59,419 nt of DNA from Amoeboaphelidium occidentale (Eukaryota > Aphelidiomycota > Aphelidea), in contig JALGPX010000061.1 in NCBI GenBank assembly GCA_023515795.1, forward strand, positions 1 to 59,419. Reading direction: 5' to 3'. Positions 1-6,807 of this stretch are shown in pieces. Numbering within the stretch: the first letter of the stretch is position 1; each line of letters opens with the position of its first letter. A program made the translations under genes and the position numbers. The notes under the pieces were generated by a model that saw only the letters and a list, made by a program, of their open reading frames with translations, was not told the origin of the DNA and searched no databases.

Positions 1-86
1 TAATTAAGAAACTCATTTGTGAAAAATTTTGAGGCTTGATCACGCGTTGCTTATTTTCAGGAAAATACTGTAAAAAAAATCGTCCT

Positions 87-768
87 TTTTTCGTTGTCGA
101 TCAATGTAACGCTTTATACAAGATCGACATTCTACCGGAGGGTTTAACTCTCCCCTTTCGGGGCGTCTGCTGTGCTTCCACCGTTTCCTTACAGCGACTG
201 TTCTTCGACTTTTGCTTTGATTCTCTTACAGTCTTACACTTTTATAGTTTTATAGTTTTACTATACGTACACTCCTTTACTTTTGTAACACACTCATCTG
301 CTCATCTTATTATAAGTTTGCAGAACTTAAAGATACTAACAGAAAATCCTTTTTTAAGAAGAAGGAGTAACATGAAGGGAAGATTTACTCGAAGGCTTCA
401 TGAAGGTTCTGACGATAATACTTCGATTGAACGCTTTTCTGGCAATTCTGCTACTGCTGCTGGAACCTTTCACGACAGCGATTGAAGAGCATCTCGTGCG
501 CCGCAACTGTCTTCAGAAGCTCAGAAACTTTTATATTCAGACACTGAAGCTTATGACACTCAGTCACATGAAATTGAAAAAGCTCTCATAGAGAATAGCT
601 TTAGGCAGAAAAAATTCTTACGTGTGGCGCACAAAGATAGATTGCGTAACGATTCCTTGCCCTTCTGATGATGCAGTCAATGCGCTGAAAGAAGTTGAAA
701 CAAGTCGATCAGGTGTTTCTTTTGAGTTTCATTGATAAGAAGGTTTCGAATGAACGACATTTAAGGCG
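87..768. repeat. Direct repeat, copy 1
   Basis: First copy of an imperfect direct repeat of about 0.68 kb whose second copy follows immediately at 770-1444. By eye the copies differ noticeably in roughly the first 150 bp (scattered substitutions and small indels), but are almost identical from the AT-rich stretch near 235 onward, including the ATG-containing segment at 371-483. Short open frames inside it end early and match no family I know. It could be part of a degraded mobile element or an assembly duplication, since it ends at the single N of the window. Confidence 0.85.
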
Positions 769-1444: not shown

Positions 1445-3154
1445 TACGATGAGATGCGAAGTGCAAATATCGTAATAGAGTCGCTTTTGAAAGACAACTT
1501 GCGGACTTCAACTTTGCTATAGCGCATCATTTATGAGCCAAAGGTCGCTTCAGCGAGAAACCTCAACTACTTTTAAAACGGCGGTCAGGAAACTCCCAGA
1601 CTTGAGCCAAGTTTTGTTTATCTGTAGACTGACGCTTAAATTGTGGCAATTGGAATCGTTTGAGTGGTGTTTTTTGAGACTGATATTTGATCTTATGCAA
1701 AACCTCGATGGGTAACTTCTTGAACATCCTCATCGTACGACTCTATTCCTTTATCTTTGACAGGCAAAGAACTCTATATGCTACTTGGACGCTAAACACA
1801 CTCTACCTATAAGAAAGTTCAGAGTCACATGAACATACGGCAATAGCATTCTCAAGACTCACGCTTGAGAGTTGAATTTCACGCATAGGAAACTTCACAT
1901 GATGACCTTTCAGGATCATCCATCAGAATTGGCACAAGTTGTCGGGGCGCAAGCTATGCCGCCATGTTTTGATCGCGATCGCGCTGTTTCAATCACAGAA
2001 GGAAAGATTATCAAGACTGTTCGTAATAAATTGCATTCCAGACCATCAGAATTCAAATTATCGTTTATTCCCTAAGCCACTTGATTTTTTACGTTAGAAT
2101 GACAGCTTTTTCTAAGGGCTGTTTGATGTTGCGACAAATCTCGAGCAAGAGCGAGCGAAGATCGAATCAAACATCGAAATGTGCTGAATACGTAACAACC
2201 AAGACGAATAGAGGTATAATAAGTACGGATATCGTAATAGGATCACTCAAAGGGCTCGAAGCTCGAGTTTCAGCTTCGTAGCATGAGCGACCCGTTTAAG
2301 TGGGCGAGGTGGTTTTAGCGAGATATCTTCAACATTTCTGACTATTTTAGTCTGAACTTCCTTATAAATTGTCTAATATACTTAAGCTATCGATTGATAG
2401 CGAAATTATAGGCGTCTGTGACGTTTAGGTGTTGTTTCACGATAACTCATTTTCATAGTGGACCTCAAAATCATGAAACTACGCTAAAACTCAACAAAAT
2501 CTATATCCAGAGAAAGGAAACAATACACCCTTTCTATCGGTACATCAAATGTTACAATTGGTGTCTGAATCATTGAGCTATAGGGTCGGAGAAGAATCAG
2601 GTCTGAAATTTCTCCAATCGCATTACTCCGCAGATTTTACATCAACTGACGGCTTGAAGCCTCCGTTTCACTCTACAATTTTTGCATAAGTGAAATCTGA
2701 CATTTTTTACTGAATTACGCCGTTCTATTAGACAATGAAGTTGTTAGAATTGTTCAATCAGTTAGATGAAACAATCACGTCGCGATAAGATGTAAAGAAT
2801 CTAGCACTGGCTGTAAAAATATTTTTCAAACTACCTAAAATATCTTTTTTATACGCGGTCACGCGTGAAATGCCGTTGACATCAAGAACGCTTTCTATGA
2901 TGCGAGTGATGTCGATCCAATTGTTGATTGAATCCGTAAGGAATAATTTCATTATCAAGTCATTTGGCGCTAATTGAATAACGAAACATTTGTACGAAAG
3001 GTATGTTTTACAAGTCTCTAGCCTAACGACGGCCTAGAGTAACTCAAAAGAATGGAGTCAGACGTTAACAACCAAATGCATTTTCCAAAGGAAGATGTCT
3101 CAACTACAGTTAGTAAGATTAACTTTACGCTTTCCTTCTAAAAACTTAGATATA
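1445..3154. other. Gene-poor accessory stretch, nothing recognised
   Basis: About 1.7 kb between the direct repeats and the Fanzor remnant. All open frames are shorter than about 70 codons and none resembles a known protein. A short echo exists between atatcgtaatag at about 1467 and a similar string near 2228. It may be decayed transposon sequence belonging to the same insertion as the Fanzor gene, but I see no terminal repeats or transposase motif that would prove it. Confidence 0.5.
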
Positions 3155-5880
3155 ATGAACTCAATTCATAATACTATGCCAGTGGACGCTGCTCATGCTT
3201 CCTCAGATGTTGATAACATGGAGTCAGACAATGCGCACCCAAATACAAACTCTTGAACTGAAGGACCGGCGGCTGGTAAACGTAAAGCAAACAGCGCGTC
3301 GCCAGTTTATAAGTGTGGTATCTCGGACCACAAGCGTACGAGCCACGGACTTTGCCCACTCAACAAGAAGAAAAAAGTTGTTGAAACATTCGGGTCCAAC
3401 GTTCCTGGTGCTGTTAAAGACGTGTTAAAGATCCCAGCGTTAAACGCTGAGCATGCTGAAGCGAGGGGTGCAAGTGGTCCGCACCTGTTGAATGATGTTG
3501 ATAGTCCCTTGGGGGCTGAAACGAAAACTCCGTGTAAGTCTGGAAGCACGGAGCATCAAAAAATATCCCACAAATCTGGCACATTGTTTCGGGGAGCTAT
3601 CAAAGAAAGATTCAAAGTAGGGGATGAAGAGGAAAGCTTTTGTACTGTTAAAATGGGATTGAACCAGTTCTTAGCGTGCTCACTGGAAGATAATGAAAAG
3701 CAAGCACTTACTGATGTTGTGAATGACGCCGTTCAGAGGCTAACTGATTTAAGTTGTGAAGCAAGCAGGATGCTAAATGGGTTTTTTTATATGGCTGATG
3801 GAGAATAATCATGCTTTTCATGATATAAGGTACTCAGATGGTATAATGTGTCAAGTGTTTCAGGCAGTACAACAAAAAACTCTTAAAGCTCCTTATACAT
3901 TCAAATCGCAGAAAAATGAACTTTTAAAGACATATATGAATGATGTGTATTCTAAAATACGAGACCCAAAAATGGCTTATTGCGACGCTTCTGGACTGGC
4001 AAGCATTGTAAATAGTATTGCCAAAGAATACGCTACTAATGCATTAAATCATATTCAAATGAATATTGTAAGATTCACACGGCAGTATGTTGATTTTATA
4101 CTAAGCAGAGAAGTCGGCTATGAACTTGGCCGGAAAAACTATAATCAGGTTAAACAATTTATACTGGCTGAGCTTGAGAGAAACTCATCGGATTCTAATT
4201 TGAAACGGTTTCCTTTTGAATCTCTTATGTTTACTAAAAAAAAGTTGGTGAAACGTCCTCAGTCTGAACACGATCCTTTGTTTACTTCTCTTATTAAGAT
4301 TTGGGATTCAGCAAGGAATGTTTTACGATGCAGAAACTTGACAAAATCGGTAGTGAAAAAAGAATGGTGGTTGTGTATTCCGTATATTTTTCAGATGCTT
4401 AAGGTTGTTCGCGCAAAATACAAGGAGGTAGCTGAAGAGAGAAAGAAATCTCACAAACGAGGTCGGGCGTTAAGATTGTATTTTTTGGTACCTCTTTGCC
4501 ATTACCAACAACGCCATATTCCTATTGATTGATCTGGACTTAATGAAATTCTGTCTTTGGCTAAACTACACGGGAACTTCAACTCTATGAAGCGCGATGA
4601 TATTTATGACAATCCAGACCTCCAATAGCGGTCAGTTTTTTCATCACAAACAGTTGAAACATTCTGTGACGGATACAAAGTAGAAGTTGCTGATTATCAG
4701 CTAATCCTCCCTAAAACCAAGGTGCCATCTAGAAGGTTTGGATACCATATTACTACAGATGGTGTTCAAGTTGGCATTTCCGTTTTAAAGCCATTAAACG
4801 AAGCTAAAGTGAATGAATGGGGTCTTGATGATGAAGTAGTGTTTCATCCTCTGCCTACGAATTCCGAGACTCAAATAGTTGCGATCGATCCTGGTCGCAG
4901 GAATCTATATGACGCTGTGGCTGGTGATGAAGATTCCAGAGAAGTAATGAAATGTACCAACAGTCGGTGGCGTGAAATCTCTGGAGCGAAGCATGGTTTA
5001 CAAAAAAGAAGCCACTGGATGTCACTGAACAAAGATCTTAATTATTTTGACTAATGGCCCCTCAACAAAGTGCTGCAACACGGAGACTTACAATACTTTC
5101 TTGAAACATTTTTTTTTCAGTTCGGGATCAGGCTCTGGGCTTTTTAGACCTCTGAAGTGGAGGAGACTGCGTTTCAAGACCAGGATCACCAGACAGAAAG
5201 CGTATGATGTAGTTCCGAAAGAGTTGACTGATGGTGATTCTAATTGTATTGTTGCATATGGTGCTAGCAAGTTCAATTGTTTATCAAAAGGTCATGCTCC
5301 TACACCAAACAAACATCGCGTGGTGGAACTTCGAAAAAGATGCAGAACAAGATTGGTTTCTGAGTACAGAACAAGTCAAGTATGTGCAAACTGCAACAGT
5401 CAATTAGAAGCAGTGTACATAAAGTATCAAACTAAGGATCACAAGAAGAAGAAGAAATCGAAACAAAAACTGCGTAAGAAGAAATTATGTTGGGGACTCA
5501 AGAAGTGTATAAACCACTCAGCTGAAGGCATACCGTATAACTTTCGCTGCTTGACTCTCTGGAATCGTGATTTAAATGCTGCAAGAAACATAAGATTCAT
5601 GTTCTTATACAGGAATGCGAACAAAAATGAAATGCCAGATGAGTTTCGGAAGAAGAAAGAAGGCGAAACAAAATCCAATGAACAGGCAGACATTTCAGAA
5701 GCATGCAATTCAAATCAAGATTCCTCTCAGCCTCAAGCGGCAGATCGGGTTACGGCACAAGCGGAGGCGGCTGCCAAAACAAAAAAGACTGTTGCAATAA
5801 CATACGATGGCGTTTGCCGGGTACCCGGCAAACGTCTAGTAAATACTGAACATCAAAGGGAATTAGTGCTTAATAATTAA
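3155..5880 (+). pseudogene. Fanzor (eukaryotic TnpB-like) nuclease, decayed
   Basis: Remnant of a Fanzor-type RNA-guided DNA endonuclease of roughly 900 codons. The N-terminal part has a zinc-knuckle-like motif (KCGxSDHKRTSHGLCP) near 3311-3360. RuvC-I is seen as IVAIDPGRRN with the catalytic Asp codon at 4887-4889. The RuvC-II strand IVAYG near 5250 carries Gly where TnpB has Glu, and a candidate alternative Glu lies 34 residues on (SEYRTS), just before the zinc ribbon (VCANC near 5390). RuvC-III is NRDLNAARNI near 5565-5594. A long Lys-rich insert separates the ribbon halves. The gene is broken: TGA at 3254-3256, a frameshift at the T7 run near 3780-3787, TGA at 4530-4532, TAG at 4626-4628 and another frameshift near 5040-5050. 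The intervals are far from the 30-43-nt local intron size, so splicing does not explain them. It is probably immobile unless supplied in trans. Confidence 0.85.
5811..5834. repeat. Perfect 24-bp palindrome in the Fanzor 3' end
   Basis: A perfect inverted repeat with two 12-bp arms and no spacer, cgtttgccgggt followed by its exact reverse complement. It is GC-rich compared with its surroundings and lies about 46 bp before the Fanzor stop codon, in frame within the C-terminal tail. It is followed by tCTAG and T at 5835-5840. It may be a hairpin of the guide RNA overlapping the gene end, a transposon end structure, or a protein-binding site. The palindrome itself is certain; its role is not. Confidence 0.9.
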
Positions 5881-5956: not shown

Positions 5957-6807
5957 TTATGCCCAGTTTCCACCAGTGGTCTCTTCACCCCAAGAGCTTG
6001 CGACAGCAGGTGCAGCAGTTGGAGGTGCGAGGCCAGCAGGAGCAGCGTCCCAGTTCAAAGCAGCTGGTTCTTCAGCCCATTCTTGAGGAGCCTGTTCAAA
6101 TGCAGATTCTTTAGCAGCAGCTTCTTCCTTGTTCTCAGCCTCCTCAGGGTCACGGTAGAAGAACATATCAACCATAACGTTCCATGGTTCGCTTCTTGAG
6201 ATGGAGCCACGCAAGCGCAAAACTTCACGAGCCAACAACCAGTACATCAAACCAATGGAGTATTTACCCTTGTTGTTACATGGAATAGCAACATCAACAA
6301 ACTGCAAAGGAGAGTCGGTGTCACACAAAGCGATGGTAGGAATGTTGACGTAAGATGCTTCCTTAACAGGCTGGTGATCAGTACGTGGGTCAGTGACAAT
6401 GATCAAACGAGGTTCCTTGAAAGAACGGGTGATGTAGTTAGTGAAAGTACCAGGAGTGAAACGTCCAGCAACAGCTTGAGCTCCAATGTATTGTGCGAAC
6501 TTCAATGCAGCTCTCTGACCGTAAGGACGAGCTGAGATGACGCAAATATCAGCTGGGTTTTCAATCGCAACAATAATGCGCGCAGCCATGCTCAACTTTT
6601 CCCAGATCTTAGCAATGTTGATCAAGTTAACACCTAATTACAGGTAAATACGCGATTTAAGTAAAGTGTACCATCAGAACGGCGCTTCCAGACATAAGTG
6701 GACATGTGGGTGTTGCAGTTCTTTGCGCCAATGTGGGATTGAGCAGACAAAAGAAGCTGAGCATCTTCCTCGGTTAATTGCAAAGTAGCAGGTAATTTAG
6801 AAGCCAT
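5957..6807 (-). CDS. RPS0: 40S ribosomal protein S0/SA (uS2)
   Basis: Cytosolic small-subunit ribosomal protein uS2 (RPSA), needed for 20S to 18S pre-rRNA maturation and 40S assembly. Two exons joined across a 38-nt intron (6634-6671) give 270 residues, the normal size. Exon 1 reads [20 protein letters not shown]; exon 2 continues with the uS2 signatures [41 protein letters not shown] and [20 protein letters not shown]. The acidic Ala/Glu/Trp-rich tail ending EETTGGNWA is typical of eukaryotic S0/SA. Its 3' end lies only 76 bp from the Fanzor remnant, so this gene marks the boundary between the accessory end and conserved genome. Confidence 0.97.

What the first reader, a model, noticed from the sequence alone, without database searches (positions are those of the whole stretch)
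3155..5880. Decayed Fanzor RNA-guided nuclease next to conserved genes
Seen: RuvC-I Asp in IVAIDPGRRN, RuvC-III Asp in NRDLNAARNI, a CxxC ribbon, and a RuvC-II strand with Gly and a Glu 34 residues later before the ribbon. Known: Fanzors are eukaryotic TnpB relatives, and many have a rearranged RuvC-II glutamate. Inference: this is a Fanzor1-like gene that entered recently enough to remain readable, but has three stops and two frameshifts. It is the clearest mobile or programmable-nuclease relic in the window.
Basis: partly seen in the sequence, partly recalled or inferred. Interest (0 to 1): 0.8.

Follow-up and report, generated by a model that had tools for sequence, protein, structure and literature searches.

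The report
Broken Fanzor1 nuclease gene in aphelid
This is a broken copy of a Fanzor1 gene (the eukaryotic relatives of CRISPR nucleases) in the genome of an algal parasite close to fungi, one of dozens of Fanzor loci there, and its last 330 bases match a different Fanzor lineage of the same genome.

Summary
Window 3155-5880 carries a colinear Fanzor1 gene broken by two frameshifts (near 3782 and 5046) and stops at 4530 and 4626, plus a stop at 3254 in a leader that does not align. A profile of relatives prefers Fanzor1 structures (SpuFz1 4e-20, PpFz1 1e-10, GtFz1 4e-8) to TnpB (~1e-3, ribbon only). The Fanzor fingerprint, DPG plus a glutamate six residues before the CxxC, is met. The host is almost certainly the aphelid Amoeboaphelidium occidentale, whose held contigs give 33 Fanzor clusters on 29 contigs, one of them intact and near full length (MP638_003169).

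Function is inferred from relatives. A new member of a known kind.

The parts
1521..2629 (+). Dispersed repeat without a recognisable gene; on 11 of 25 other contigs that hold it a Fanzor match follows on the same strand within 3 kb; relation to the Fanzor element unproven
   Evidence: no significant Pfam match in ten ORFs from this repeat, best E 0.06
3155..3256 (+). Possible start and leader of the Fanzor ORF, ended by TGA at 3254; not alignable to relatives
3257..3808 (+). N-terminal piece with a zinc-knuckle-like motif (CGISDHKRTSHGLC, 3314-3355); relatives have a similar knuckle
3777..4532 (+). Middle piece (REC region by position), colinear with P0007; entered after a frameshift near 3782; ends at TGA 4530
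4533..4628 (+). Short in-frame piece between TGA 4530 and TAG 4626
4629..5054 (+). WED to RuvC-I piece: TDG motif 4755-4763 and DPG 4887-4895
   Evidence: meaning of the motifs from passages of PMC10711439
5029..5880 (+). RuvC-II (rearranged Glu 5362-5364), CxxC ribbon (5383-5394), RuvC-III Asp 5569-5571, C-terminal tail; frame entered after a frameshift near 5046
5516..5841 (+). Right-end segment of another Fanzor lineage (97% and 99% identical to two overlapping pieces of contig C176; upstream only 69%)
5811..5834 (+). 24-nt perfect palindrome (hairpin) just inside the right edge; putative omega-RNA terminal stem
5840..5841 (+). TA at the right edge of the element (...GTCTAG|TA); the flank from 5842 would be the guide if this copy made an omega RNA
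5957..6637 (-). Neighbouring host gene: part of ribosomal protein SA/S0 (uS2); the element lies just past its 3' end

Best explanation
A disabled copy of a Fanzor1-carrying mobile element, of roughly 2.8 kb if like its relatives, in the aphelid Amoeboaphelidium occidentale, lying beside the ribosomal protein SA gene. Intact relatives would make an omega RNA from the element's right end, with the flank as guide, and use it to cut DNA at matching sites, favouring retention or spread of the element. In this copy the protein is broken, and the last ~330 bp (RuvC-III, tail, terminal hairpin, edge) belong to another Fanzor lineage, most likely through recombination or gene conversion. Shown: homology, breaks, right edge, mosaic pattern in the assembly. 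Inferred: nuclease activity, omega RNA, role in mobility, recombination as the cause of the mosaic.
For: Profile of aphelid relatives against PDB: three Fanzor1 chains rank first (4.2e-20, 1.3e-10, 4.3e-8), natural TnpB at 1.2e-3 over the ribbon only. DPG, rearranged Glu, ribbon, RD and the WED TDG motif (definitions in passages of PMC10711439). Colinear alignment with two frameshifts and two stops. Identity of the broken copy to P0007 (332/723) is like that between other copies (C64 338/717; C90 vs P0009 324/686), which suggests that decay is recent. Right edge: window and C176 are identical up to ...CTAGTA and differ beyond. Mosaic: window vs C176 203/296 matches at 5151-5515 and 182/185 at 5516-5700, Fisher p 5.5e-19 with sites taken as independent; five other copies show no step. 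P0002, a partial protein of the same species, is 58/59 identical up to KKCINH and then departs.
Against: Left edge of this copy not found. No transposase recognised in what was read. No RNA data; no Rfam match at gathering score in the window; the last 206 nt fold only moderately better than shuffles (z -1.8, 5 of 200 as good). Structure prediction of P0007 failed (mean pLDDT 43.6), so the fold rests on sequence. Right ends of C183 and C96a are weak hairpins (4.0% and 9.2% of 9,888 background windows fold as well). The window's C-terminal piece scores below Pfam's cut-off for the ribbon (23 vs 26.3 bits).
Confidence: 0.88

Rival explanations
1. The gene is intact and the breaks are sequencing or assembly errors.
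For: The frame changes lie in or near T runs; the assembly has single-N joins that duplicate repeat ends.
Against: Two verified stops need substitutions, not run-length errors; three other ORFs of this contig, of 517, 751 and 755 aa, are open; no N within 3155-5841.
Confidence: 0.08
2. The mosaic at about 5516 is an assembly chimera of two repeat copies rather than recombination in the organism.
For: C176 is itself patched with single Ns: its two pieces that match 5491-5730 and 5614-5841 lie on either side of one, and the end occurs twice. Fanzor copies are hard to assemble.
Against: No N at the junction in the window. At the junction window and C176 share a run of only 14 identical bases before scattered mismatches begin (5491-5504), too short for a usual k-mer join. 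The DNA of the P0002 lineage could not be read, so its overlap with C176 is unknown.
Confidence: 0.25
3. The protein is broken but the right end is still active: the locus is a 'ghost' that supplies an omega RNA, guided by the flank beside the ribosomal protein gene, to intact paralogues.
For: The right end is nearly identical to that of C176, with a strong hairpin, while the ORF is dead; ghost omega RNAs supported SpuFz1 activity (passages of PMC10432273).
Against: No expression data; no intact protein with this type of right end in the loci read.
Confidence: 0.2
4. It belongs to TnpB, Fanzor2 or Cas12 rather than Fanzor1.
For: Pfam's ribbon model PF07282 is named for Cas12f1-like proteins and is the only relevant Pfam match; no tree was made, and whether Fanzor2 chains are in the PDB set was not checked.
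Against: Profile ranking; DPG and rearranged Glu; TDG motif.
Confidence: 0.03

Closest known systems
Amoeboaphelidium occidentale MP638_003169 (P0007; contig C90)
   Same: Colinear over residues 13-740, same motifs, same type of right end (...GGGTTCTCACTAG|TA)
   Different: Open reading frame intact; 46% identical (332 of 723); TNG instead of TDG
SpuFz1 element Spu-1 of Spizellomyces punctatus (Fanzor1)
   Same: Single Fanzor1 ORF, TA beside the ends, no transposase found, abundant ghost copies (passages of PMC3627910 and PMC10432273); best profile match 4.2e-20
   Different: Spu-1 has 30- to 33-bp inverted repeats; by eye none join the ends of the C183 and C64 elements, and none frames the window copy
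Parasitella parasitica Fanzor1 (PDB 9cf0)
   Same: Best PDB match to the window's own C-terminal piece, E 5.2e-6
   Different: Remote; in that search only residues 37-196 of the 283-residue piece align
Ghost elements of S. punctatus (passages of PMC10432273)
   Same: Short repeats that keep the Fanzor right side and lack the gene; here a ~455-bp repeat
   Different: The aphelid repeat keeps a piece of the coding region (RuvC-III); no inverted repeats seen by eye; no omega RNA shown

Membership tests
Fanzor (1 or 2) | DPG at RuvC-I | tested here: met
   4887-4895; definition from passages of PMC10711439
Fanzor (1 or 2) | Rearranged RuvC-II Glu six residues before the first CxxC | tested here: met
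   Glu 5362-5364, six residues between it and C 5383-5385; definition from PMC10711439
Fanzor (1 or 2) | C4 ribbon, then RD (RuvC-III) | tested here: inconclusive
   CANC 5383-5394 and NRD 5563-5571 present; PF07282 E 9.3e-5 but 23 bits against a cut-off of 26.3; the second Cys pair is not a clean CxxC (CINH plus a later Cys)
Fanzor1 | Closer to Fanzor1 than to TnpB or Fanzor2 | tested here: met
   Profile against PDB: Fanzor1 chains first, natural TnpB 1.2e-3. No Fanzor2 chain is listed, and whether any is held was not checked; no tree was made
Fanzor1 | TDG motif in WED | tested here: met
   4755-4763; not general here: P0007 has TNG
Fanzor1 | REC2 kinked helix pair (fold) | tested here: inconclusive
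   AlphaFold model of P0007 too poor
Fanzor1 | Encoded in a non-IS607 eukaryotic transposon | tested here: inconclusive
   TA-edged elements of 2775 and 2756 bp for relatives C183 and C64; no transposase identified
Fanzor1 | RNA-guided DNA cleavage with omega RNA | not testable with these tools
   needs bench work

The most novel reading that the evidence does not exclude
In aphelids the Fanzor1 right end (RuvC-III, C-terminal tail, omega-RNA scaffold, terminal hairpin and edge) is an exchangeable module: recombination between diverged copies re-pairs nuclease bodies with foreign omega-RNA ends, and broken copies live on as guide donors for intact ones.
Probability: 0.2. Interest if true: 0.65.

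Novelty: new member of a known kind. Interest (0 to 1): 0.4.

Why it matters
It shows a large and diverse Fanzor1 complement in an aphelid, a group placed at or beside the base of Fungi: 33 clusters on 29 contigs of an 11.3-Mb genome, several lineages and at least one intact gene, with defined element edges and candidate guides. The mosaic copy makes it testable whether nuclease and omega-RNA end evolve as a unit or can be swapped.

Tried and rejected
Introns as the cause of the breaks: rejected, because the alignment runs codon by codon across each break with shifts of one or two bases. Terminal inverted repeats for the window copy: none found at its edges. The palindrome as a general TE end: only three places in the held genome at up to 2 mismatches, one here and two at C176 with identical flanks, probably assembly duplicates. 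The upstream repeat 1521-2629 as a transposase gene: only short ORFs; ten ORFs from it gave no significant Pfam match (best E 0.06). An autonomous partner sharing the left end: of the four left ends without a Fanzor match (C57, C12, C11, C16), C57 and C12 were read; C12 has a 338-aa ORF nearby that I judged by eye not to be a transposase and did not scan; C11 and C16 were not read. Tandem Fanzor ends at C96, C55 and others: single Ns between the copies point to assembly joins. Structure prediction was useless, so no fold search was run. The second protein search reached six proteins, five named as A. occidentale and one (P0010) unnamed, so no wider tree was made. Papers: PMC10432273, PMC10711439 and PMC3627910 were seen as passages; PMC11423790 only as a search listing with the start of its abstract. 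Searches: Fanzor + Amoeboaphelidium gave 0 papers; two of aphelid, transposable elements, TnpB gave 109 papers, and none of the 12 shown holds the word aphelid; Fanzor + gene conversion gave 5 papers, 4 listed and not opened, their titles unrelated. Supplementary tables could not be searched, so an earlier listing of this family cannot be excluded.

Full report
WHAT WAS CHECKED. Pfam scans of six pieces gave the TNB/ribbon model PF07282 on the last piece (E 9.3e-5, below its cut-off) and one unrelated match at E 0.1 (Ndr) on the middle piece; NCBIfam gave nothing on four pieces. The last piece matches the Fanzor1 chains of Parasitella (E 5.2e-6) and Spizellomyces (E 1.2e-3); the piece with RuvC-I alone matches nothing relevant.

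HOST. The window is contig C106 of an 11.3-Mb, 204-contig genome. Protein P0003, annotated as Amoeboaphelidium occidentale, lies on a 157,554-base contig; C188 has exactly that length and encodes that protein letter for letter. P0009's contig length, 13,227, equals C64; P0007's contig (46,470) does not equal C90 (44,773), although the protein matches at 100%. Some contigs seem to be absent: P0002's 8,921-base contig should match the window's DNA closely and gave no match (inference).

THE BREAKS. Aligned with frameshifts allowed, the window matches intact P0007 over residues 13-740 (332/723 identical) with frameshifts near 3782 and 5046 and stops at 4530 and 4626; against P0009 (297/680) the same four breaks appear. 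C90 against P0009 shows none; C64 against P0007 shows one frameshift and one stop. The TGA at 3254 lies in a leader that does not align. A further compensating pair of frame changes near 5110-5150 is suggested by eye. Identity to P0007 is like that of other copies, so constraint was probably lost recently (inference).

FAMILY. A 17-row profile (A3) against PDB ranks SpuFz1 (4.2e-20), PpFz1 (1.3e-10) and GtFz1 (4.3e-8) above designed and natural TnpB and relatives (1.8e-4 to 1.3e-3, ribbon only). Parts of HIV-1 gp41 constructs also appear at about 5e-3, in the tail, which shows the noise level there. DPG plus the displaced Glu is called the fingerprint of Fanzors in PMC10711439 (passages). Two relatives, L044 and L045, have DPN instead of DPG, as has SpuFz1 (alignment). 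The AlphaFold model of P0007 was too poor to use.

GENOME CONTEXT. P0007 as query gives 86 matches in 33 clusters at 10 kb spacing (34 at 3 kb) on 29 contigs, 60 of 241 candidates scored, so these are lower bounds. Only C90 covers the query nearly whole (21-749) without a stop; C183:31761-33437 covers 107-631 without one. Many apparent tandem copies are separated by single Ns and look like assembly joins.

ELEMENT EDGES. Two loci, the window and C176, are identical up to ...GTCTAGTA and then differ. Copies C183, C96 and C64 end in ...TTTCG(T/A)ACTAG|TA, C90 in ...TTCTCACTAG|TA, C188 in ...TTCTGACTAG|TT. Each has a potential hairpin just inside: of 9,888 background 45-nt windows, 0.02% fold as well for window and C176, 0.30% for C188, 0.49% for C90, 0.71% for C64, 1.4% for C96b, 4.0% for C183 and 9.2% for C96a. 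The right-end pattern of C183/C64 occurs five times at up to 3 mismatches (backward control 1). Left ends TA(T/C)CACTAAAGACACTGTTTC occur nine times at up to 3 mismatches (control 0); five of the nine precede a Fanzor match on the same strand (C64, C183, C188 twice, C39). No such left end is in the window. The C183 and C64 elements are 2775 and 2756 bp from edge to edge. By eye no inverted repeats join their ends.

MOSAIC. Window against C176: 203 of 296 compared sites match at 5151-5515, 182 of 185 at 5516-5700 (p 5.5e-19, sites taken as independent); C183, C90, C64, C96a and C188 show no such step (p 0.21-0.92) (sites up to 5700 only). BLAST gives 232/240 for 5491-5730 and 225/228 for 5614-5841; in C176 these two pieces lie on either side of a single N. 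P0002 of the same species, a partial protein, matches 58 of 59 residues just upstream and then departs, while P0001, from another source, follows the C176 type at the end. So the window joins the body of one lineage to the right end of another. Recombination or gene conversion is the likelier cause; an assembly chimera is not excluded.

UPSTREAM REPEAT. Window 1521-2629 belongs to a dispersed repeat; on 11 of 25 other contigs that hold it a Fanzor match follows on the same strand 0.6-2.9 kb away (Fanzor matches taken). On the other 14 none is known; the other side or strand gave one case (C172). It is not known whether it belongs to the Fanzor element.

SHORT REPEATS. A ~455-bp repeat with only the last ~65 codons of another Fanzor type gave 71 matching pieces (40 of 65 candidates scored), 24 of them (query included) spanning query 1-3 to at least 452, the other 23 at 90-97% identity (counted by me); six copies were aligned. 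It resembles the ghost elements of S. punctatus (passages of PMC10432273).

MECHANISM. Inferred from Fanzor1 relatives: transcription of the right end gives an omega RNA whose guide is the flank; the nuclease cuts matching DNA. None of this is shown here, and this copy as it stands cannot make the full protein.

Noticed in passing
window 1521-2629: Dispersed repeat (up to 89% identical elsewhere); on 11 of 25 other contigs that hold it a Fanzor match follows on the same strand within 3 kb. Its sharp stop at 2629 may mark another mosaic junction.
   Followed up: partly
window 33-485 and 754-1161: Near-duplicate stretches around a single N at 769: probably an assembly join of a kind common in the loci read.
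   Followed up: partly
L047-L052: ~455-bp repeats carrying a Fanzor 3' coding end, with sharp ends and no inverted repeats seen by eye; 24 near full-length pieces in the genome search.
   Followed up: partly
L020, L021, L023, L024, L026, L028: A second Fanzor type (C142-like) has its own right end (...GAAAAGC(A/G)CAATA), about 200 bp after the stop in L021, with differing flanks.
   Followed up: partly
L044 and L045: Two closely similar open Fanzor frames (569 and 586 aa as cut) with DPN instead of DPG; candidates for further intact genes.
   Followed up: no
L058:278-1291: A 338-aa ORF 0.2 kb after a Fanzor-type left end without a Fanzor match; could be host gene or cargo.
   Followed up: no
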